DNA of 64,000 nucleotides from Isoetes taiwanensis. Its lineage: Eukaryota; Streptophyta; Lycopodiopsida; Isoetales; Isoetaceae. Where the stretch lies: NCBI GenBank assembly GCA_021234155.1, contig JAJEKV010000130.1:577658-641657 (forward strand). Direction: 5' to 3'. The notes below the pieces were generated by a model. It saw only the letters and a program-made list of their open reading frames with translations, was not told the origin of the DNA and searched no databases. The position numbers and the translations under genes are program-made. This document shows, piece after piece, positions 15,701 through 49,021 of this stretch; the first letter of the stretch is position 1, and every line of letters begins with the position of its first letter.

Positions 15701-17590
15701 CACTTGAGGAGGTTAAGAAACAAACTAAAGGTTCTCAAATAGATAAAAAGATCTACCATCTTATTACTGAGCATATGGAGGACATCAGAACTCCAAATAA
15801 TCAATGGCAAATTGAATAAGCAGCTATCGGTCGACACCATGGCCTTATCACTTGAAAAGAAACCATTCTAAAGCTACCTACTACACCAGAGAGACAACTT
15901 AAGTCTGCTTGTGCAAAAAGGATGGAAGATATACACCGCTGCTAGATCAAACTCAAATGGATCATTGCTTTGCATCAGTAGGCCCAGCCACCAATCGTGA
16001 ATCGTTTCAAATATGATCAATAATCGTATCAAGCCAATGCAAATTATAGGAGCAGAGAATTCAACCATGCCTTTGTATGCAATCATTACTAGATTTTTAG
16101 AGTTGACAGCATAAATTAATAAGGGAGTGCTAACCATTAATAATTTACTTCTTTTGGGACAATGGTAGTGCATCAATAACACTATGAGAACTCAATTTGC
16201 TGGCTATATGGTTACACGTAATTGCAGAAGTTATGATTGGCGTCAGCCCCATCTATGATCGCACAAAGAACTTTGCTGGACCTTATTCAAATCCCATTGC
16301 CCACAAAACACTAAAGGGGAAAAATATGACACAGTATCGGGATGTACATTGGTTCCTTTAAGGACCTTTTGAATTCTTTATACTAAAACTAACATTATTC
16401 CACATGATGCTCTTTGCACGATGCTATGAGGAGACGCAATAGAGCAGAAGTCTCTACTAGAGGAATGGAAGGTGCGTAAAATCTCTGATGAGGAGGCCAT
16501 GTTATCTCAATAAATGGAGAACATCTTTATCCAAATTAAGCAAGAAATGATTCACTGGCCATCAAGAAGCATCAAGAGGAAAGAGGTTTGAGAAATAACT
16601 AGCCGAGCCTTCTTCAACCCGCTTCATGCATGGCAACAGTAAAGGGAGGCACATGCTCCTTTCCGCTAGATTTCCACAACTTCCTTTGTGAGGAGCTTTG
16701 ATCTTCAATATCTATGGCGGTACGCAGGTAGAAAACCTGACCATACAAGATTTGATTGCAGCACAAGAGGGTTTCCGTGTTCAACTCAATTTAATACAAC
16801 TGCTTCTCGCAAGTTTAAAAACTCTCTGCTTGTATCTACTGACATGTCAAACGTATTTCAAGATGTTTCTTTGCTTTTTCTGCATATCATTTTCCAATGG
16901 ATATACCTCCTTTGATGTAATTTATGTTAACATGAATACCAAAAATCCTTTTGCCTTCAAAAAAGAAAAAAAGCAATACATTGCGTAAATTCTTGCCGCT
17001 TTCTTTATTTTTCTTGTTTCTAACACTACTGGCGATTCATAAAACGCCACCATGGACACTTGTGTTGATAGGCTATTATATCTTGAATTGATTTCAATCA
17101 AGACACGAGTTTAATTTTGCACTTGTAGTTTAACCGCTTAGAACTAAGTGTTCCGCAGCTTTAAATTCAACTTTTAGTAGTTAGGTAAGTCAGCATTATT
17201 TTGTGTTTTAATTCTAGATTAAAAAATTGATTAATGTTTAATCTATTGCTGCGTATGCTGTAGGTCGTACTGGACGGCTTAGGTGTTTCGTGGTTTTCTT
17301 TGTTGTTTCATTGGAAGCGGCCGCGTATGGTTTCTTATTACTGTGTAAAGTCATATCAACTCACTTTTACAGGCGAGTATCACTGACGGTAACTCGAAGA
17401 TGAGACCATTGCCGTAAATTCAATGAGTCAACGAAGTCTATCGTGACGAATCCTTGTTGAAGGATGTTGAGAACAAGGCTTGGTTTAAACAGCACTTTGT
17501 TGAGTCAAGTGATGAAGGAAAGGCAAGGAACTAAGGAATTTGCGCACTAACGTATCAGCTATTAAAGATTGATAGTTGAGTAAAAGATAT
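12800..17590. other. Gene-poor spacer
   Basis: I see no supported gene in this stretch. Open frames of 60-112 codons occur on both strands (for example 14,494-14,832 minus and 15,874-16,182 minus) but lack domains, consistent frames or splice context. From about 17,160 the base use becomes more gene-like, with TTTTTATTTTG-style intron stretches that lead into the recombinase relic. Confidence 0.4.
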
Positions 17591-17599
17591 GTCTTCAAA

Positions 17600-18710
17600 G
17601 TACAATGAAGTTATGTAAGAAGTCTGGAGGAAGTTTGTGAAGTATGATCCGCACTTCGGCGAACCTCTGCCTCTTATAGAGCAGATACCTCATCACGGTT
17701 TGAATGAAATGTTAGTGCGATTTCTTCTACAAGTAAAAAAAGGATGGCTCGACGTTTCCTGCGGGCAAGTACTAGTATTTTTATTTTGTTGTTCTAATTT
17801 AATTTGAAACTAATAGTTTGTGTTTTATAATGCAGTTTAAATTGTATGTTAAAGGCTATTAGCATAGTTATCCGTAAGGATCAGGAGTCAAAGATGGCTT
17901 TAAGGGGTCTGAGAGTTGAACATTTTAATATTATGAGGGATCCATTGTTTATTAGAGCTAGGACAACTTTCATTGATTATAGTATTTAGCAAAAGAAGGC
18001 GCAGGCAATTCCACATAATTCTGAAAAGGATTTGCTTGCTAGATGAATACATCAGCACATCTAAAGGTGTTCAGAAAAGATTATGCTTTTATCTCTGCTC
18101 CAGGTTTGCGATAAGGGACACCAGTATTTGTATGAGGTTAAGACATAGATTTGTCACTTGAAAGTGATGGGAAATTTCAGTACTTGGTCTACAATGAGAG
18201 GAATAGCAAGACATGGGGAATAAATGTTACAAAATATGATCCCAGTCACTTCAGAACTGCGATTTGGAGTTACGAAGATTACTTTGTCTCAATTTACAAA
18301 CAATATGTTCGCCATTTTCTTGTCCAGGATAATGTTGCACCACGACTACTGTTTTTGCAAGCAGTTGTGAATTATAAACATGAGGTAAGTGGTTTTGTAA
18401 TTGTTGATTTATTTTTGTTTTTCAAATCTAATGTTTCAAAATGGATTAAAAGCATGGGTGCATTTATCAACATTGATATTTGCAACAAAACGGCGGTTTC
18501 TTCGCGACAACGTGATGCCATAAACCACCTAACTAAATTGGCGTCAATCAAACACGCGATCACTGGGAGTCTTAAGAAAAGTATGTAATTTGGTTTTATT
18601 GGTTTCTATTTTTATTTTAAGATAATTAGTTAATTTGAGTTACTTTTGTGGGTAGAATTGCAGCAGTTCTTCAGGGTCTATCAGCCGCTATGAGCATAAG
18701 CGTTCTACAC
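17600..18710 (+). pseudogene. Crypton-like (DUF3504-type) tyrosine recombinase relic with introns
   Basis: Pieces in successive frames read in the order expected of Crypton/DUF3504 recombinases. About 17,615-17,768 contains EVWRKFVKYDP and LNEMLVRFLLQVKKGW, like the family's 'LN..L.RF..EVRK' helix. About 17,837-17,985 contains LNCMLKAISIVIRK and FNIMRDPLFIRARTTF, like 'L..I.R.LR...I..D..F...R'. About 18,030-18,160 contains LLDEYISTSKGVQKRL and RFAIRDTSICMRLRH, matching the 'F.LR..EH..L' box whose Arg (codon 18,114-18,116) is catalytic. About 18,163-18,260 contains GKFQYLVYNERNSKTWG, like 'YL.YNE..TKT..GG'. Splice-like signals include an AG/GTAAGT donor at about 18,384 and a TGCAG acceptor at 17,831-17,835. 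A candidate nucleophile sits in SRYEHKRS (18,683-18,706), in another frame. At least two frameshifts and an in-frame stop make it non-functional as written. Family assignment is from memory of motifs, with no search. Confidence 0.5.
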
Positions 18711-19268
18711 CAATAATAAGTAATTTCTTGAATAATTGGCGCATCTCACAAAAGTGTTTCACTGCAAGCATAAATCTTTGTTACATATTATGTTTGATAT
18801 TTATTACATAGTTCTAACACTGATTGTATCATTGGTATTGAGGGGGCCAAAGTTGTTCCTGTTGTTGATTCTTCAAGTCATGTCATAATACAAGTCCTGC
18901 GGATTACAAATTCGGCCATTCCGCCCGCTGCCCCAGAAAACGCTAGTGAAGATAATGACTAGTGGACTATTGGGCATTTGAGGATTTTTTGAAGGCAAAT
19001 CCTTAGATTCAAAAGTATTTATCGAAGTGAGAAATGTCAATGAGTGTTTAATTTGCAATTTTAATTTTGAATTTGTTTCATGAAAGATGCTCGCTTTTCA
19101 CAAACAAAGAAACCAATTCATGGTTGTAGCTTTAGCAACTTATGATAGAGTTTTATGGTATCATCATGTACATGTCAATGAAGGGACAGACCCTCAAAAT
19201 TTCAAAACCATAACACATGATAGCTTTTGACATGAAGAGCTTCATGTCAACATTTATCCATTCCGAAG
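18711..19268. other. AT-rich spacer
   Basis: No gene is supported. This could be the 3' untranslated or terminal part of the recombinase element. I found no terminal direct or inverted repeat marking an end. Confidence 0.4.
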
Positions 19269-19900
19269 CACTACAAGAGAATCGTGTTTATCACGGGCTT
19301 TTTTGTCACTTTTGTAGACTACAAAGAAATTCCGTGAGACTGACAAAAATAAGGACCATAAAATGTCAAAATTGGTGACGATACATCGTCATAGTTTGTC
19401 ACTTAAGCAAATTTTGACACTCATTATGTCATCTCTATAGCATTGTTTAACTTTAAGTAATTGGACACTTATATCACATATCTTAGGTTGTTTTATAATT
19501 TATTGTCATCTATAGTGTCATATTTAGATTTTACAATTTTTTCGCAACTCCTTTACACTATTACATCATATTTCTCGTGATCATTTTTTTATCGTCTTTC
19601 AAAGATTTTTTGCAATCTATTTCAAGATGAAAGAGTTTAATTTTGTCACCTATTTTAACATATTTAGGTCATGTTTGTCATTTTGGCACCTATTTAGTCA
19701 TATGTTTTTGACATATTTTGTCATCTATTAACGTATGGCAATTATTTGTCAATTTTTCTAAAGCAATTCTTAGTCACATTTTTGTCATATTTTAACCATG
19801 TGTTTTGACACATTATTATTATTATCATCTCTGTTTGGCATTATTTTGACATTTTTTTAGCACTTAATTCATCATGATTAGAGAACACCATCTGTAAAGA
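19269..19900 (+). mobile_element. CACTA (En/Spm) transposon terminus with subterminal repeats
   Basis: CACTACAAGAG at 19,269-19,279 is the standard outer end of plant CACTA elements. The three bases before it (AAG, 19,266-19,268) would be one copy of the 3-bp target duplication. The following 600 bp hold about eleven TGTCA words in one orientation (first near 19,304, last near 19,785), as expected of the subterminal transposase-binding zone. A near copy of the end word, CTACAAAGAAATTCCGTG, follows at about 19,316. A palindrome, TGACGATACATCGTCA, lies at 19,376-19,391. The element should extend rightwards. I found no matching TCTTGTAGTG end in the window and no transposase, so this may be a truncated or solo end. 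Confidence 0.65.
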
Positions 19901-25964: not shown

Positions 25965-26140
25965 ATAATATTCGATTCTCGATAACTTTTTTATCGCTTG
26001 TCACTTCAAAGTCGGGCGATACATTTTTGTCATCCCATCAGCCTTCCAAAGCTCCATTTATTGGCAATCTTCTGTCATCCTATTATCACCAAAGTCAAAC
26101 TTTGTTGTCACCGACATTTCAAATCAACTTATCACACTTT
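25965..26140. repeat. TGTCA-bearing AT-rich zone left of the second GC-rich block
   Basis: TTGTCAC/TTGTCAT words occur near 26,000, 26,028, 26,072 and 26,107 within otherwise AT-rich DNA. The style resembles the subterminal zones at 19,300-19,800 and 31,390-31,800. It lies immediately left of the abrupt GC rise at about 26,160. I see no CACTA end here. Confidence 0.35.
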
Positions 26141-26159
26141 TATACCACATGCTTTCTCG

Positions 26160-29100
26160 CCATCTTGCTCCTCTCCACATAGGAACCCCACTTGCTAGTA
26201 GAATTGGAGCCACCAAAGCTGAGTGGGAGGCTAACAAGGTTCTCAGACAGGCTAACAAGGCCCTAGCCGGCATGGTGTTGGAGATGGAGTCTCTGATCCC
26301 ATGTGCTCAAAAGGCAAATCGGGTCGGTAGCCAGGAACCCGCATCAATAGTATGGGAGACCCGCACGCCGATGGGAAGATGGCCCGGCCTGCATACTTCG
26401 AAGGCAATGTGCTGCAGGTCACACAGGCGTGGCCTCAGCTGGGACTTCAGAGCTCATCACTGACACTATGACACGAGAGAGGAGCCGCTAATGCAGGAGA
26501 GACTTACGGTCACCAAGAAACTTCTACCGAGGTGGAGGCAGCCAACCACCATGGCACCGACGCAGTCGCCTCAGCAATGCCTGCATTACCGCCGGGATCT
26601 TCGTGTAGTAAGATCGAGCAAGCTCCCATTTCTACCGCAGGTAGGCTGGCTCGAAAGACGCCGCTACTGAGCTCCTGAGCGCCTGTGGGGCCGCGTAACC
26701 ATCCGTTTATTGTGAGGCCGGTCTCCCTACCAGGTGTTCATAGTCGCGTTAGGGTGGAGATGGCTGCGCTGAAGAAGTTCTACAAGAGCGCCGGTGGTTC
26801 CGACCATTGTGGTCGGTGAACACGCGCCGTACCGCTACTCCCCGCCACAGCCTTCCACGCCGGGTACCACGCCCGCGATTGCTGCTTCGGCTTCTCTGGG
26901 GCCTAATTTGCTTTATCTTCAGTTTACATTTCCGCGACGACATCCCAGTTTACTCACCACTCACCTCTGGGGATTCGCTCGCCTTAATTTTGACTCAAGA
27001 AGTCGCTAGAATCCCTGTAGAGCTGCTAGCGGAGGGGCTGGCTGGAATTGTGGCGTTCCGAGACATGCCGTATCGTTAGGGAGAGTTCTCGCCCACAACA
27101 TCCGAACACACATTCGGACGGATGATATTCCTACCATTGAAGCGTTCGCCATACTCGTCGTGACCGGCATTGTCATAATTCACTCGCTAAGGGATGCGCC
27201 AGTGCGTGATGCCATACGCCAAAATGATGTCAAGGGGACATCCCTGCACGCGGGACCGGACTCACACCTCCATGTATCAGATGCTGCATGAGCTTGTCAT
27301 CAGAGGGTATCGCGCCACCGGGTGCCAGGTAGATTATTGGTTCGGAGGTGATGCACATTCGACAAGCTATCGCCGCAGCACTTCGCAGCTCCACCGCAAT
27401 GCGACGCTGCCCGCCGCTTTCCTACCACGGCCCCTTTCTCTCAAGCCCTACCCTCGCTCCCTTACACGGCTCCACGCACTTCAAATTTCACATGTCGCTG
27501 GCCCATTTCCATTTCACCTCACTGCCCGTCCTCCCCCTCACGCGACTCAGTCGGCAGATATCCCTCACGGACAACAGGAATTGCGTCTCCCAAGTGGCTC
27601 ATGGTTCTAGGCTTCCCTTGGCGTATGGGGACAGTCTCAACCGGCGACTCTATTGTATGGATCTCATCTTTCTCATGTGGAGACATGGGAGCATGTCAAG
27701 CACGTGCCACCGATCGCCTGCCAACATTTCTGGCCTTCAACGCCCGCATGTGACGAAGTCATGGTGGAGTGGTTTGCTACTACCCATCAACCTTTGGCAC
27801 ATTCGTTACCCTCCAAACGTACGGGGACAATAACCGGTGATTGTGGGTTCGTGTGCACACACCGCTGGCAACCCTTTTTCTCGGCCGCCTGCTATTTCAC
27901 GCTGCATGCCAATTTCTATCGCAGCCCCGATGCGGATGATGGACCTTATGTCGACGAGTATGATGACATACCAAAGAAGCTGGTAGGTCGCCCTTGAGAT
28001 TTCACGTAACGACCGAGCACCTACGCCACCCTGACCCCTGCCTGATGTCCCCGCCAGCTCACCGCATGCACGGGCCACGAGGGTCGGATGACAAACTGTG
28101 TCACCGCTTTTGGCGCACGCCGCGTGGCATTTTGACTTGGATAATTTGGTAATGGCCTTTCACAGCGGCCCGACCGCAAGTGCACATGCGACAAGACAAT
28201 CGGGAGGGTCTAGTGGTGGACTATGTCAGAAGTTATGCTAAAGATATGCATCTCATCGGCCGCTTTCCTGGGTAAGTACGTATCGATGAGGAGGTCGACC
28301 GTGATCACCTCCCACTTTATTTGTCCGGTTTTCGGAATCTCCCCACTATGCTGCAAATTTCGCTGCCCTCGCTTGAGAGAGAGACTAGATTGCGAGCAAA
28401 AGTGTGGTAGGATCACGCCGAGATGCTCAAGGGACGCCTTCCGGCACTCTTTATATAGAGCATATGGTATGCGGCAAGGGCTCCATTGTGAACCCCTCAG
28501 ATACGGGCTTTTTATGGGCGAAACCCCAACCATAATGCTATACATATGAATTTTAATTTTGGCTCCCTTATCCGTATTATGTACTCATCTCCAACTAGGC
28601 AATCCATATACCCTTTCCATACATATACACCGAATGTTGGTCGATGTTTATCATACATATACCTGAATGTTGGCCAATGTTTATGCAAACCATTAGCCAA
28701 TGTTGGCCACCTACAATAATGGTTTATACGTTGGCATATGGGATGTTGAATTGTTGTTCTAACCCCATGGTAAAGCCATGGTCCTAACTCTATAATTCTT
28801 ACCCGGATCCATATGCGGAGCACCATTTCGCTTCTTCACCACCTCCGCTTTGAGTACTTCCAAATTTGTTTCCGTACGCCGTACCAACCCATAATGATAA
28901 TGCATCACCCCTTGGCAATAAAACCCCCTACCGGGCCACGATGTTAACCATACCGGTTCAACATGGTGAAGTCCCCGGAAGTTCTTCCCGGGCACTTCGC
29001 ACTTCTCCACACTAGAGCGCCACAGATGCATTCGCCACTTTCGCTACACGCGATGCGCCGACAAAAGCTGCGCACTGGCCGCCAGTGGTCAAGAATATTC

Positions 29101-31330
29101 TCACAGAACATGGTTTCCCGATTAGTAAGAACGCTAAGCGGCAGGCTCATTAATATCTCGGGATTCGTGTACCGCCATAAAGTTACCAATGGGGCATCGC
29201 CTTCATTCAAGGGACACAAAGGCACGGTACCTTGCCGCACGGGAGATGTTCGCCCGGCCGACACTCATATCCTCTAACCTTGCATAGAGTGCTTCAAGGC
29301 CAGCCCACGTATCATCACACCCCTGGAAACAAGACTTTGCGCCGTTCTATGACCCGCCAGGACGCTGCACTACACCCCAAAATGGCTCCCCATTGGTTCT
29401 CGCCGTGGACGAGGATGTTGAGGAGGGCCCGCGAACGTCGGCTAATGGGAAGGCAAATGACCTCGAGGAAGTGCATCGAAAGTTACCAAATGGCAGCGGC
29501 GCTCGCCAGGCCGGCCTCCTCACTACCTCCCCGAGCTCAACGAAACACTGCGCAGCTGTCTCCCACACGGAATCACGCTGCGGTTGTTCCCACAAGCGCG
29601 GGCTTATTCAACACCGTCCGCCACCACCTGACGCATCACGGTCAGCCTCTCCGCATTTTGCCAAACCGCTATCGGGTAATTGAAGTGCCACAGCTGGACC
29701 CGGCCGGGCGAGGTGTAAGTGCCAGATGTGCGGTGCCCTCACGCAGTGCTTTTAGACCCGCCACTCAACGACACCACCTTACACCGGCGGCACTGACATT
29801 GAAGACAACCGAATTACCGCGTGACTTGTATTGGTTTTGTCAATTTCGCTGGCGATACGTTTCGAAAGCTGGTGGCTAGACTGCTTAACCGGGCTCCCGC
29901 TGCTCGTGTAGCCGCCATATGGCGAGAGCAGCTTTTGGCAGATGCTCGTTTACTCATCAAGTAGTACTCGTCCGCGGTTGCCCTCACAACACCCTTTTGG
30001 CCTCATCGACCGCCAGCCCCTCGCCACCGGCATGGGGATGGCATGCCTTTTGCACCGTCATCCTACCATGCGACGATGTTGGCCCACGGCCCACCCCTGT
30101 TATGCGCTCACTCGACGCTTCAGACACATTTGTCGTGCTGCCGTATTATGCGCTAATCTCGCCAAGCACTGTGGTGGTTCTCATATCCTTCATCGCCACC
30201 CCATGCTCTCCTCGCGACTCTACATATCGGGTACCGGACGTGTCACTGCTCTATGCACCTAGAGTTCCCTCCCCGCCGATAGCGCCTATCCGCCAGGGAT
30301 AGCAGGAAAGCGCTTTGGCGCCATGCAGAACAACAGTCACCAGGCAGAGCTCTGGGGCCATCAATATAATCGGTCGCAGCCCGCCCTCCGCACGGGTCGG
30401 TGGTTTGGGGCCCTACGCTTTGGTGACTTGGAATGACTGGGAGCAGTGCGTAAGGGCATTTCTTGGCACGCACTGGGGTGAAACCTTCACCCTCTATCGA
30501 TTTCGCTGCTAGAAATCGGATTTACTGCTTGGCCGCAGTTCTTTGATAGACATTACTATCGCTTATTTTTCGTAGTGGTGCCATTATGGGTGAGCGTCGG
30601 CCTCGCGACTGCTTACACTGTACCATAATCTTAGGCCTCATGGGTGGTGAGATCATTGTTCGGGCTAAATGGAATGTGTAGAGTACGTATGTGGGTATCA
30701 GCCGTCGACATCGTGATACCGGGCGGAGTACTTAGACGCTGTTTCGGCGCTTCCTCGACCCGACGAGCACGCCAAAATGGCCCACATATCATCAACCCGG
30801 TAGCTAGTCTGGGCCCAATGCCTCTACCCTCGCTCCCACGCCGAAAAGCTGCACTCGCTCATTTGCACCCGGGTGCCCACCATCTTCGCAGATCGGTGAC
30901 AAAGTGTGTGGATTGAGCCCCGCCAGACAAAGTTCTCGCCGCCAAACCAAAAGCCATTGAGGGATGAGTCTCTACACTTTCAGAAGCTGCCCGCTCGGGC
31001 CAGGATCCGGGCCGAGCACGCCCTTTGGGCACGTGACTTGCCCCTTGTATTTGTCGATGAACACACCGCCGTAAGACGCGTCTCCGGGTCGACATTCGAG
31101 GAAATTGACTCGCGGGAGGGTCACCTTTTGCCCCGCTTCGCTGGCTTCATGATTGCACTACAGCCGGTGGCCGGATCAGAGAGCGCAGATGAGACAGTTA
31201 GGGATGGGCGAGTCAAGAAGTTGATGAGCTGCTATTGCTGAACTCGGAGCGATCCCGGGCAAGACCACTTTTGTCGCTTTTTGTATTGGGTCCCATAGAC
31301 CGATCACCGCCGGACCATAAGTTAACCTTC
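26160..31330. mobile_element. GC-rich degenerate block, probably a decayed transposable element
   Basis: About 5.2 kb of GC- and CpG-rich DNA with sharp edges, in composition like the LINE block at 810-4,390. Many open frames overlap (up to 215 codons at 29,232-29,879 plus), but most are CpG-driven shadows. Stretches that read like former protein are IPTIEAFAILVVTGIVIIHS with SLRDAPVRDAIRQNDVKG (plus, about 27,125-27,230, no start codon), KLVARLLNRAPAARVAAIW with EQLLADARLL (plus, about 29,865-29,960), and LPLVFVDEHTAVRRVSGSTF (plus, about 31,035-31,095, inside an open frame ending at 31,241). I recognise no reverse-transcriptase, integrase or transposase motif in any of them. Its position between two TGTCA-rich zones raises the possibility of a DNA transposon. 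Confidence 0.4.
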
Positions 31331-31389
31331 CTTCCTCTTCCTTCCCTTCCTTTTCATGATTTGAGGCGCCTATTGACGCACTGCTGGAC

Positions 31390-31850
31390 ATTATTTGTGC
31401 CATTTCTTCAACTTTGTCAGCATGACATTTTATTGTCATACTATGGTCACTTATATCATTTTGTCATTTCTTTGTCATTATAGTACAAATACCGTTGACA
31501 CCTTTTTATCAATATTGTTTTGTCAAAACTATTTCGCCATTTATTGTCGAAGCTGTGCCATTTGTTGCCACATTATAGTCAGATTTATATCATTTGTTTG
31601 TTATCTTTGTCAAGATAAGTCAATCTATTGTCATATTTTGAATAGTTTGTCAAACCATGTCATTCTATTGTCACATTATAGTTTCATTTATCATCTTTGT
31701 CACTTTTTGTCACTAAAAGGGCCACACACTATCAGCTTTTCACATTTATTGTCATTTGATTAATTATTTTGTCGGGCGTTGTTATTGTCATTTTTCGTAT
31801 CGCTTTTGACATTATTTAGTGACAAAAAGTGACAATAATAAATCACCGTT
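31390..31850. repeat. TGTCA-rich array with a 19-bp inverted repeat
   Basis: About fourteen TGTCA words lie in one orientation between 31,418 and 31,790, mostly as TTTGTCA or ATTGTCA. Near the right edge, 31,697-31,715 (TTGTCACTTTTTGTCACTA) is exactly reverse-complementary to 31,817-31,835. The array lies immediately right of the GC-rich block. It has the look of the subterminal binding-site zone of a CACTA-like element, but no CACTA end word is present. Confidence 0.6.
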
Positions 31851-31859
31851 TCATAGGTG

Positions 31860-33660
31860 CGCCCTTCTACCGTCAGTTGATCCATGTTGACATGAAGCCT
31901 TTTTATTTTGATACGCTAAAATCTTTGGAATAGACCTAACGGCCCAAATTAGGGGAAGTTTCTTTGATCGTCTTCATGGCTTTTTGACGGTCAATTTCTT
32001 TTTGAAGATGAACACGCCGATCCCAATCTTTATGCTATCCAAGTCGACATGTTAGCAGCCTAACATCCTCATGTGACTCTACTTCCTAGTGAGCTTAATT
32101 TTTCTCACCCCTATCCACGCTATAATATCGGGACATTTGTTGCCAACTGCCCTCATTTTTTGAGTTGTGGATGGTTTTTCAAAGAGCGTTTGTAATATTA
32201 ATCCATTAATTAGCTAACCCATTCATATCCTTATACTTTCAGCAGATATGTGCACTATTTAGCCATTTAGCCACTATAGGAGCCATAACCATGTTCATTT
32301 GCCTCCAGACAATTTTTTTCTTTTGCTCCACAACGCATTCAAGAAAGAATTTCATATGTAGAAATCAAGTTTATGTAGGCTAGGTGAACCCATTGTGTGA
32401 AGAAAATGTGCCTTAAAAGATAAAAGTCGCCCAAGGGGTTCATGGATGATGTTCAGTTGTTTGAAATCATTAATTTGAGATAGTCTTGAGACAACAGTCT
32501 AACTATTTGGAGCATTGTTACATCACTAAACATGGTTCTTCAATAATGAGCTTTTAATCCATAAGACATTCCATGCCTAATCAACCATGTCCAAATAGCA
32601 TATAAAGAGAACTATAATTCATTAATGGTTTAAACCAAGCTCAAATCCATAACTAGCATTTTAAACTATTCACATCATTGCACGATATTATCATTAGGAA
32701 AACTTCCACCTAAGTGGTGACCAAAACATTGGATACCTAGGTCTAAATGAAGCCAAATAAGCAAAGTGATTGTTCCAATGCATGTAATCCAAAAGGAGTC
32801 CTATAGACCTAAGCCATTGTAAGGGGGTTTGTGCCATCAAGTTTTAAGGTAATTTTGTGCAAGTGTGCAGATACACAACTAGTCCATACCAAAAAAATTT
32901 ACGAATTGGAAATCTCTTGTCACTGTCCTAGAATTGATCTAGGGCAATCCCATCAATGTGCACATGAGAACTATCGCTTATTTTCAAGGTATATCCTATG
33001 TTCGAGAAATTAACATAATCATATTCTAACTAAATGTACATGTCAACATTGGGGACTAGACTTGCCTTTTTATAGATGCCTGTTATAGTGAAAGCCAAAA
33101 ATTAGGAAGCATAATTTGATAACATTTAAAGGTTCGACCTACATTGAACTCCATTATTGAAAATGACTTAGTATTGCATATGACAGCTGAGAAGCACCAT
33201 CCTCCATGAGCACTGCAAAGGACTAGCCAAAGGTCTGATCAAAAATTCCAATTTATATTACGTTCACCTCAGGTTGTTCACTAACAACCATTCTGTTATT
33301 AGAATTAACAAGGTGATGCACATGATTAGTGAAAGGTAACATCGTCTCTGTGCATCACAATGGACTAATCCTAAGAAGTTAAACTTACCTATATGAGGTA
33401 TCATGCGCGTTACCTTTTCACCATAACTTTCTTTGAAGCCGAAGAAGGTGTAATCCCGGCCGAAAATAATACATAGTACATACCAATGGCATTTATGCCA
33501 TAGAAAGGAACTATTCTCAGCATCAAGGGAAGGCGAAGCAAAAAGATGGAAAATCATTGAAGGTGATAGAAGCTGGTCTCGAAGAAGGTCATAATTATAG
33601 GATTAGCCAGGAGTGAACAAAAAGAGGTGATTATAAACTTGACTAGTGTGATGAAGTTGA
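31860..33660. other. AT-rich gene-poor spacer
   Basis: I see no gene. Open frames such as 33,264-33,557 (minus, 97 codons) have no recognisable domain. Confidence 0.45.
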
Positions 33661-42263: not shown

Positions 42264-43479
42264 ATCTCCCCCTTGCGGGACGCTTGGATTTTTTTTGAAT
42301 GGGCGGAATGTTTGGTATCCTTCAAGCCTTGAAAGCGAGGGAGCGTCAATCCGTGTAAATATCCGCCATAGCTGCTCCACATACCGGCCATATCCATGAA
42401 GCCCAGCTGAGTTCCGGCTGCCAGAGGAGCCCCATATTCGAAGTCATCTCTTTTGGCAAAGCTTCACATTTTGGCAAAGTTTCACATCTGCATCGGCATC
42501 ATTTTGCAGTTCGCTTCAGCATTTCAAAGCTTACATTTTTCTGGTTCTCGATTCTGTTGGCTTTTTTGTGGACAACAGTGGTATCTCCTGAACAATTTCC
42601 TTTGTTTCTTGATATATTTGGGCACAACAGGTACATTTGCATTTTCTTCATAAGAATCGTGAATCTAAGTTGATGAACACTGATTTTCAGTCTCGGGTAG
42701 CAGCTGCACAGCGGCTAATTCATGCACTAGGGTAAGGTCTGCTCCAAGAATGGTTTGCTGCGACATGATCCGTGCTAAAGCATCATATGATTTATCAGAA
42801 ACTCTGATTCAGGTCTGTGTTGATATGTTTCACCGTTAGTGAGAACTTGCTTTTTACAAATTTTCGTTGCCTAATTTGTGTCATGTGCATTGCGGGATGC
42901 CAAGGAATGGGTGATGGAAACAAATGTAACAAGCCTGATAGACATAGCCAACTTATTTTAGCCAGCAAGGTTTAGAGTGAGCTCTTTCACGGTTCCACCT
43001 TATGAAATCCATCTGTAAATGGTTATCTAGATCTCTATTCAGTATATAGGGAGCAACAATTCATGAACATGGGAGGCATAAGAAGGACAAAGAAGGAAAT
43101 TTCACCAAAGCCTGTTCGTGCAAAACTAACATTTTCGCGCCAGTGGGCTCTAAACGAGCAATCATCTTCATCTTAGCAAACTGGATTTTTCTGTCAGGCG
43201 CGTACGCCTTCTCAAAGGCAATTTCATCACTGCCATTGAAATAAAATCACATTGCTACTCTTGCGCCTGGAGACAGCAAAGAATAATGGGCGGAAAAAGG
43301 CACATATTTCTCCCGTGTTCTTATTTATGCCTCCCTGAAAATGCACTGATGTGGTCTGAAGTGGGTATTGGTTATTAAATGTACTTGGATTAGACTTTAT
43401 ATTCTTCCCAAAATTCATGAACATGGAGAATTGTTCATGGTATATGAATTCTTTTGCCCAATGGTCTGGACAAACATCC

Positions 43480-44040
43480 TTTAATGCTAAAGCGAAGTAC
43501 TTCCCTGGTCCTCATAAGTTCACCATTGTCAATGGTTTAGCCGCAGCCTACTGCAATGGAGAATCTGTTATTCACAGGAATGCAGCCAGCAATGTAATGC
43601 TCGATAATAACTTTAACGCTCGGCTTGGAGACTGGAATTTGCAGATTGCTGAGCAAATTTATGAACCCGGAAAATACTATTACGTGGAACATCTTGCTGG
43701 CAGTATTGGCCCCTGAAGCCGTGCAAACAGGGAGGTCAACAGACAAGTTCACGTGTTCAGCTTTGAGCGGTGGACGTTAGAGGTTGTTTAGGCAGACAAG
43801 CATCAAATGATGTATTGCTGATGACGAGGTTGTTCGGTGGACTGTCGGAACTTGCACAGATGATAAACTTGGCGGATGCCGCCGACCCCTGCTTCGGAAG
43901 CGCTGGAAGTTTATGACGTTCATGAAAATGAAACCATGTTGCATGCGCTGGGTCCAGCCTGAACCACGCGTAGCAGGCTATCAATGCAGCAGTTGTGAAG
44001 ATATTAGCAGGTGAAATACACACTTCAGGCCCGGGAGCAG
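43480..44040 (+). pseudogene. L-type lectin receptor-like kinase pseudogene (kinase domain)
   Basis: Successive pieces spell the C-terminal half of a LecRLK kinase domain. PHKFTIVNGLAAAY is the helix before the catalytic loop. SVIHRNAASNVMLDNNFNAR followed by LGDW is the catalytic and activation loop. LAPEAVQTGRSTDK at 43,706-43,747 is the APE motif, in a shifted frame. VFSFERWTLEVV corresponds to DVFSFGAVTLEVV. LADAADPCFG at about 43,870-43,900, a PEPR segment at about 43,960 and VVKILAGE at about 43,992-44,015 follow. The phrase NVMLDNNFNARLGD is characteristic of lectin-type plasma-membrane receptor kinases of plants. The catalytic Asp of HRD is Asn, the following Lys is missing, DFG reads DWN, and there are several frameshifts and stops, so the copy is dead. 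No lectin or transmembrane part was found upstream. Confidence 0.75.
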
Positions 44041-47794: not shown

Positions 47795-49021
47795 GGGATC
47801 CTTCCGTCAAGGTGGCAATGTGACATTGTTGCAAACATGACAGTCAATTGGGGTTTGAGCATCAGAAGCTGCAGCTCGCTTTATGATAAGGGACCAAACA
47901 TATGTCGTTACACAAGTCAGATTATCGCTTCAAAGGAAGGTGGTAATGTCACCTTCAAGGTTCTCCTAGCAGAAGTACCCTTTATGAAGAATGGCATTGC
48001 TAGTGATGTTAAGTATCTTATTAATTGGGTAAGCAATGCCAACACCTCTGGAGCAGTGGGAGAAAAATGGCAAATTGAGAAGAGGAATGAAGATAGCTGG
48101 TACTACTTTAATCCTCTTCTTGATACTACCTGCAGCAATAAGATGTCAATAGGCTATATACCTGATATGGCTGCTTTTTTGCATAACAGCTATGTAGAAT
48201 GCAGCTGTGTGGGTAATGTATGTATCAAGATAAGATATTCTTATCCAATTTACACGGGGGTTTTCAAAGATGCAGGTGGTTGTAAGGATCTTAACTCTTA
48301 CTGGTTACCATTAAGTGGTGGAGTATGGCTCTACTCTTATAGTACCAAATCAAATGTTTTTCATTACATCAACTCCATTGTCGAGTTGGATGGCATGAAT
48401 GACACTACTGTCGCAAAAATGGATGCTTTCCGGATCTGTTTTGAGGGATTTATAGACAGCAACAAAACTCAAAGCATCCAGGATGCTTGTCCTAATTATA
48501 ACTTTATCAAATATAATGAAACATATTCGAGTTCTAATCTGCAGATAGTATACTACGCACATCTAGTCTCTCAAAGTGTTCAGAAAGCTGTAGAAAGTGG
48601 GGATGACTGCCAAGAGGGCAGTGCAACTGATAAGGTATGCTCCTCTGACCTTCTAACTGATCTTGAAAAGCAAGAAATACGCGGCATAATAGCAAAATCC
48701 GGGCAGTTGCAAGAAGTAAGGGATTATGCCAAAAATCAATGGCAAAGCATAGCCTCCAAACGCCACACAGTTTACTTGGATATCATAACAGCTTTGTTGG
48801 CTGTGCTTACTACAACAACAATTATTTTTAGTGAGGCATTGGTGACAACAGAGCAGAAGATTGTTGACTGTGTCCACTGGATTTTCAGGATGTTCAAAGC
48901 TAAAAGGGAAATGGTAGATGGAATAGAAGGAGAGAGAAAAGATAATAGAAATTTGTCTTCATGGATGATCATTGCTGGCAGAGAAGCAATAAGGCTTGTT
49001 CTATTGGTTGGAGTGATGTAA
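47795..49021 (+). CDS. Putative multi-pass membrane glycoprotein, family not recognised
   Basis: This is the longest intact frame in the window: 394 codons from the ATG at 47,837 to TAA at 49,019-49,021. The frame is open upstream to about 47,795 (reading QCDIVANM before the Met), so the real exon may begin earlier. Residues 1-305 look extracytoplasmic, with eleven cysteines (including CSCVGNVC at 122-129) and five N-glycosylation sequons (N37, N69, N188, N209, N227). Residues 312-332 (VYLDIITALLAVLTTTTIIF) form a clear membrane segment. A basic, charged stretch, RMFKAKREMVDG, follows, and a second hydrophobic segment begins at about 376. There is no signal peptide at the annotated Met, in line with an upstream exon. 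Codon use is ordinary and the sequence is free of the CG-rich words seen around it. I recognise no domain and do not propose a function. Confidence 0.65.
   Translation, partial: GILPSRWQCDIVANMTVNWGLSIRSCSSLYDKGPNICRYTSQIIASKEGGNVTFKVLLAEVPFMKNGIASDVKYLINWVSNANTSGAVGEKWQIEKRNEDSWYYFNPLLDTTCSNKMSIGYIPDMAAFLHNSYVECSCVGNVCIKIRYSYPIYTGVFKDAGGCKDLNSYWLPLSGGVWLYSYSTKSNVFHYINSIVELDGMNDTTVAKMDAFRICFEGFIDSNKTQSIQDACPNYNFIKYNETYSSSNLQIVYYAHLVSQSVQKAVESGDDCQEGSATDKVCSSDLLTDLEKQEIRGIIAKSGQLQEVRDYAKNQWQSIASKRHTVYLDIITALLAVLTTTTIIFSEALVTTEQKIVDCVHWIFRMFKAKREMVDGIEGERKDNRNLSSWMIIAGREAIRLVLLVGVM

What the first reader, a model, noticed from the sequence alone, without database searches (positions are those of the whole stretch)
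17600..18710. Crypton-type tyrosine recombinase relic in a plant-like window
Seen: in correct order but across frames, LNEMLVRFLLQVKKGW, LNCMLKAISIVIRK, FNIMRDPLFIRARTTF, RFAIRDTSICMRLRH and FQYLVYNERNSKTWG. Established: Crypton/DUF3504 recombinases (ZMYM2/QRICH1/KIAA1958-like) have an N-terminal LN..L.RF..EVRK helix, an 'I..D..F...R' stretch, a catalytic Arg in F.LR..EH..L, and a YL.YNE..TKT segment. Inference: this is a decayed, intron-bearing Crypton-like gene. Cryptons are described mainly from fungi, oomycetes and animals, so a land-plant copy would be noteworthy, whether resident or horizontally acquired.
Basis: partly seen in the sequence, partly recalled or inferred. Interest (0 to 1): 0.7.

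Follow-up and report, generated by a model that had tools for sequence, protein, structure and literature searches.

The report
Decayed Crypton-like recombinase gene relic
A stretch of probably plant DNA carries the worn-out remains of a gene resembling the tyrosine recombinases of Crypton transposons; it is dead, and its value is as a pointer to a little-documented presence of this family in plants.

Summary
The five peptides are in the sequence exactly as stated, and the central ones exceed chance. A six-member version gives 20.9 bits against at most 10.9 in 131 shuffled windows. The supported core is 18054-18318: the first-arginine box and the YNE..SKT box, across one frameshift. The upstream peptides match the right profile positions in order but weakly. 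The C-terminal third (HxxR, catalytic tyrosine) is unsupported, so catalytic status cannot be judged.

Against it: Pfam finds no DUF3504 match in the window pieces; intron-tolerant chaining on DNA did not set the site apart window-wide; the one real family sequence obtained (QRICH1) does not find it alone; the profile members were typed after the window had been seen. Copy number, intact relatives and host are untested. Best reading: a decayed, probably multi-exon Crypton-type recombinase gene, probably in a plant genome; a new member of a known kind.

The parts
17619..17768 (+). candidate exon 1: N-terminal helix of the recombinase (...LNEMLVRFLLQVKKGW...)
   Evidence: open frame; matches profile positions 3-16 with only 0.9-1.3 bits
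17769..17835 (+). candidate intron 1 (GTACTA...TGCAG), 67 bases; taking it out leaves the frame off by one base
   Evidence: 79% A+T, 52% T against 27% T in exon 1; boundaries chosen by eye, inference
17836..17986 (+). candidate exon 2, first frame (...LNCMLKAISIVIRK...FNIMRDPLFIRARTTF), followed by an in-frame TAG
   Evidence: profile positions 38-61, 4.6 bits alone; 4.7 with exon 1 joined, against at most 3.3 among the 233 of 400 shuffled joins that HMMER listed
18054..18146 (+). core, second frame: STSKGVQKRLCFYLCSRFAIRDTSICMRLRH, with the expected first catalytic Arg (FAIR)
   Evidence: profile positions 100 onward
18148..18384 (+). core, third frame after one frameshift: DLSLESDGKFQYLVYNERNSKTWG...YFVSIYKQYVRHF (supported to 18318)...
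   Evidence: profile positions 133-193; best single piece of 2194 in the window
18385..18436 (+). candidate intron 2 (GTAAGT donor; acceptor uncertain)
   Evidence: 18384-18454 is 46% T; by eye, inference
18437..18580 (+). possible C-terminal exon (...KWIKSMGAFINIDICNKTAVSSRQRDAINHL...ITGSLKK); no catalytic HxxR recognised with support
   Evidence: by eye only; 28.2-28.9 bits in three frames when added to the 29.6-bit core, no better than 400 shuffled versions (mean 28.6)
18581..18655 (+). candidate intron 3 (GTATGT...GGGTAG)
   Evidence: 18580-18657 is 53% T; by eye, inference
18656..18710 (+). possible last exon, where the catalytic Tyr would lie
   Evidence: by eye only; no gain in score in any of three frames (28.5-28.8 bits)

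Best explanation
The region is a pseudogene of a Crypton-type (DUF3504-like) tyrosine recombinase, probably of several exons, decayed by frameshifts and stop codons. When intact, its protein would have had an N-terminal DNA-binding (SAM-like) domain and a C-terminal tyrosine-recombinase fold. If it was a Crypton, the recombinase would have cut out and reinserted its own element through a covalent tyrosine-DNA intermediate. Shown: similarity of the core (18054-18318) to the family, colinear weaker matches upstream, and broken frames. Inferred: the introns, the mobile origin, the catalytic mechanism (from the family) and the plant host.
For: Peptides present in order. The family profile singles out the site: 20.9 bits with six members, 131 shuffles at most 10.9; 25.9 bits with eight members, next 6.6, 87 permuted profiles at most 13.9, and 20.1-33.3 bits whichever member is left out; 24.3 bits, next 7.5, with real QRICH1 added. 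Pieces fall at the right profile positions in order. The typed members are fair family proxies: the seven scanned of eight score 41.6-133.3 bits against PF12012, and two profiles of them match solved QRICH1 at 98.5 and 96.1 bits. Local shuffles of 17401-18800 (300 each) do not reach the site's score under two DNA-level settings (22.9 against at most 20.9; 26.9 against at most 25.2). T-rich candidate introns.
Against: Pfam finds no DUF3504 match to the pieces tested or to the joined protein. Frameshift- and intron-tolerant alignment to the whole window under seven settings did not set the site apart from shuffles. tblastn with one typed member does not list the site among its 40 best places. 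Of eight typed members used singly, three rank the site first, one third, and four do not list it among their top three. Real QRICH1 alone does not find it. True members score 181-352 bits full length against profiles of the others, so the window is far more divergent than any of them. The C-terminal third has no support and exon 1 adds only 0.1 bit to exon 2.
Confidence: 0.7

Rival explanations
2. Relic of a host gene domesticated from a Crypton (as QRICH1, ZMYM2 and KIAA1958 are in animals), not of a mobile element. This is a sub-case of the best explanation, which leaves mobile or domesticated open; the two odds overlap.
For: Candidate introns within the recombinase-like stretch; only one copy in the window; no element ends recognised. 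WOC/ZMYM/QRICH1 genes are described as sharing intron positions (PMC3212892 passages).
Against: Decayed, so no sign of selection now. The KCTD1 and KIAA1958 domains are each uninterrupted by introns (PMC3212892 passages); whether the ZMYM/WOC introns lie inside the domain I did not see. Cryptons lack inverted repeats (recalled), so missing ends say little.
Confidence: 0.3
3. Recombinase relic of a DIRS/Ngaro-type retrotransposon.
For: These elements also carry tyrosine recombinases; a few DIRS and Ngaro entries appear in a plant annotation table (PMC8729191).
Against: PMC3212892 states that DIRS and Ngaro recombinases do not match DUF3504 even at E 100 (passage). Ten neighbouring open frames tested show no reverse transcriptase or RNase H in Pfam; other decayed frames nearby were not tested.
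Confidence: 0.06

Closest known systems
CryptonA and KIAA1958/ZMYM-like DUF3504 recombinases (PF12012)
   Same: Order of the N-terminal helix, the I..D..F box, the F..R box, the YNE..SKT box and a V..YK.Y box; core identity 19-26% to the eight typed members (16 of 84 to 23 of 89).
   Different: Below Pfam's detection; the E-H that follows the first Arg in several typed members (R..EH) is not kept; the HxxR/Tyr part is unproven; broken by frameshifts; candidate introns within the domain.
QRICH1 (PDB 9hjt)
   Same: A solved member of the same family by profile (98.5 bits).
   Different: Only 9 of 89 identical in the core; alone it does not find the site.
Phage tyrosine integrases (Phage_integrase superfamily)
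   Same: Same superfamily by family knowledge (recalled); typed members also match PF00589.
   Different: A profile of real phage integrases does not detect the site; it is a weak control, since it scores the typed family members themselves only 2.6-20.6 bits.

Membership tests
DUF3504 / PF12012 | Match to the Pfam model above its 29.7-bit cut-off | tested here: not met
   No DUF3504 hit at E up to 10 for the pieces tested or the joined protein (HMMER filters on); cut-off
Crypton-type tyrosine recombinase | Similarity to Crypton/DUF3504 proteins beyond chance | tested here: met
Crypton-type tyrosine recombinase | Catalytic tetrad R-H-R-Y | tested here: inconclusive
   First Arg position present in FAIR (within 18102-18146); the HxxR and Tyr segment has no score support
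Crypton transposon | Dispersed element copies encoding the recombinase | not testable with these tools
   Whole genome not held; one copy in the window
Domesticated DUF3504 gene | Intact, selected gene with orthologues | tested here: not met
   This copy has frame changes and in-frame stops; orthologues not testable
DIRS/Ngaro retrotransposon | Reverse transcriptase/RNase H beside the recombinase | tested here: inconclusive
   No such Pfam domain in the ten neighbouring open frames tested

The most novel reading that the evidence does not exclude
Land plants carry, or carried, their own intron-bearing lineage of Crypton-type recombinases, closest to the KIAA1958/ZMYM-like branch and below the reach of current domain models. 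Relics like this one are what remains; intact members may survive in related genomes as transposons or domesticated genes.
Probability: 0.35. Interest if true: 0.6.

Novelty: new member of a known kind. Interest (0 to 1): 0.36.

Why it matters
Cryptons are characterised at the protein level in fungi, animals, oomycetes and a diatom (PMC3212892 Table 1); the plant reports that I saw are an automated annotation count and a survey table. A plant copy with introns would widen the documented host range, offer a source for domesticated plant DNA-binding proteins, and suggest that Pfam-based annotation misses such relics. This single dead copy does not establish that alone.

Tried and rejected
Own-genome search: no genome held. 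Pfam on single and joined pieces: nothing for DUF3504. PDB by sequence with the joined window protein: no hit up to E 10. IMG/VR with the window piece and with typed members or alignments of them: no relatives. One search gave one locus, L002, whose matching ORF reads by eye as an ordinary phage integrase with H.LRHT; it and 79 relatives served only as a control: 60 distinct integrases were extracted from the 80 loci and the first 40 used. Prokaryote genomes: two scans, no relatives. PF12012 over one phage record and 14 control genomes: only a sub-cut-off ring in Bacillus subtilis. Frameshift- and intron-tolerant dynamic programming on raw DNA, seven settings: searches (one; three) put other places first; (one, lenient) gave similar scores everywhere; one setting put the site first with 22.9 bits (36 whole-window shuffles reach 24.7) and one put it second with 31.7 (31 shuffles reach 36.2). 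Pairwise blastp of one typed member with the joined protein gives E 0.002 for a one-sequence search. Rfam and tRNA: 0 matches. The opposite end of the CACTA-like tip: 22 matches with up to three mismatches, 19 expected by chance. Structure prediction was not attempted: no relatives to align, and a decayed single chain would be uninformative. Literature: nine searches of the held library, whose listings were capped in several cases (for example 20 of 42 and 15 of 54).

Full report
What is in the sequence. The open frames are short and broken: an in-frame TAG ends the second piece at 17987, the frame changes before 18054, and it changes again between 18146 and 18151.

Is it more than chance. Pfam does not report DUF3504 for the single pieces tested, for the joined protein in two versions or for the core alone. 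I therefore built a family profile. Seven of the eight were scanned with Pfam, and all seven match PF12012 above its cut-off (41.6 to 133.3 bits). The eighth, a sibling at 71% identity to another, was not scanned. Profiles of three and of five of them find solved QRICH1 at 98.5 and 96.1 bits. They are thus fair proxies for the family, but I had seen the window before typing them, which is a possible bias.

With the six-member profile, the best of 2194 six-frame open pieces is the piece at 18142 (E 0.042). When neighbouring pieces are also joined automatically across frames (5585 pieces and joins on +, 5248 on -), the best is 17937-18585 with 20.9 bits. The next place on + has 7.6, the - strand at most 3.3, the reversed window 6.5, and 131 dinucleotide shuffles of the + strand reach at most 10.9 (mean 6.2). 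With eight members the site has 25.9 bits, the next 6.6, and 87 column-permuted profiles on the + strand reach at most 13.9; leaving out any one member gives 20.1 to 33.3 bits. With real QRICH1 added as a ninth member the site has 24.3, the next 7.5. A control profile of 40 of the 60 distinct real phage integrases extracted from 80 IMG/VR loci does not pick the site (best elsewhere 5.8; joined window protein -2.1); it is a weak control, because it scores the typed family members themselves only 2.6 to 20.6 bits.

To probe the recall bias I masked typed residues that equal the window's. Masking the 35 that occur in at most two leaves 6.9 bits, still first (next 6.7) but not significant. The harsher mask would also remove true signal, so I do not think that it decides the matter.

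Results against. Seven settings of a frameshift- and intron-tolerant alignment to the raw window did not set the site apart from whole-window shuffles or other places. Under two of them the site did exceed 300 local shuffles of its own region. Single typed members find it first in three of eight cases and third in one; the other four do not list it in their top three. QRICH1, the only family sequence taken from a database, does not find it by itself. True members score 181 to 352 bits full length against profiles of the others, so this relic is far out.

Anatomy. In the region, pieces match profile positions 3-16 (from 17700), 38-61 (from 17900), 100-124 (from 18054) and 133-193 (from 18151), in genomic order; the last three are the best three of 68 pieces, the first is rank 7. 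Exon 2's first piece scores 4.6 bits and 4.7 with exon 1 joined; of 400 shuffled joins the 233 that HMMER listed reach at most 3.3; exon 1 alone has 1.3 and adds almost nothing. The core scores 29.6 bits, over 18054-18318. Adding the proposed C-terminal exon in any of three frames gives 28.2-28.9, no better than 400 shuffled versions (mean 28.6); adding a last exon gives 28.5-28.8 (no shuffles for that one). The HxxR motif and catalytic tyrosine that I thought I saw by eye are therefore not supported. Three candidate introns, their ends chosen by eye, have GT donors (17769, 18385, 18581). Their T content is 52, 46 and 53% against 25-32% in the candidate exons and 34-35% in the flanks. T-rich introns are typical of plants (recalled). 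Intron 1 leaves the frame off by one base, which fits decay.

Surroundings and host. A sequence like the typical start of plant CACTA transposons (recalled) lies at 19269-19281, followed by a TTTTGTCA-rich stretch; the pattern was taken from the site itself, and three matches with up to two mismatches are not above chance (1.7 expected), so this is a lead only. A kinase relic at 43360-43713 reads like a plant lectin receptor kinase (recalled; Pfam kinase E 0.02, below cut-off). These make a plant host likely, not proven. No genome is held for the window.

Mechanism. If it was a Crypton, the protein acted as a site-specific recombinase moving its own DNA through a tyrosine-linked intermediate; this follows from the family (PMC3212892: abstract, passages and sections 5 and 17 seen; the intermediate is recalled) and is not shown here. 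A domesticated origin is the main alternative. The same paper describes shared intron positions among WOC, ZMYM and QRICH1 genes, but uninterrupted domains in KCTD1 and KIAA1958 (passages), so introns do not decide between the two.

Known before. Kojima and Jurka list Cryptons from fungi, animals, oomycetes and a diatom, with no land plant in Table 1; their tree legend has one plant suffix, for Chlamydomonas. Their text mentions a DUF3504 protein in the mitochondrion of a green alga. Elliott and Gregory list Crypton among superfamilies found in all groups studied, with land plants as one group (PMC4438587 section 8). An automated plant atlas counts 535 Crypton annotations in soybean (PMC8729191 section 12). 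A review says that none has been described in Arabidopsis thaliana (PMC7385966 passage). Passages of PMC3537659, PMC11630846, PMC5846285 and PMC8232201 gave no plant Crypton protein. In nine library searches (listings capped in several) I saw no listing of a protein-level description of a land-plant Crypton; that is a statement about those listings only.

Verdict. A real but decayed relative of Crypton/DUF3504 recombinases is the best reading (0.7). It is a new member of a known kind. Its interest lies in what a search of plant genomes would find.

Noticed in passing
19269-19281 and about 19300-19860: CACTACAAGAGAA, like a CACTA-transposon tip (recalled), followed by an AT-rich stretch with repeated TTTTGTCA-like words; no matching opposite end found above chance.
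   Followed up: partly
43360-43713: Kinase relic (...VIHRNAASNVMLDNNFNARLGDWNL...) resembling a plant lectin receptor kinase (recalled); Pfam kinase match below cut-off.
   Followed up: partly
47795-49021: The longest open frame of the window (408 aa, + strand), with a likely membrane segment towards its end (by eye), has no Pfam match up to E 10.
   Followed up: partly
18849-18962: Open stretch ending in an acidic tail (...ENASEDND, then stop) that might be a last exon of the same relic; read by eye only.
   Followed up: no
26000-32000: G+C rises to 49-54% against 37-41% on either side, with many overlapping long open frames on both strands; the four frames tested have no Pfam match.
   Followed up: partly
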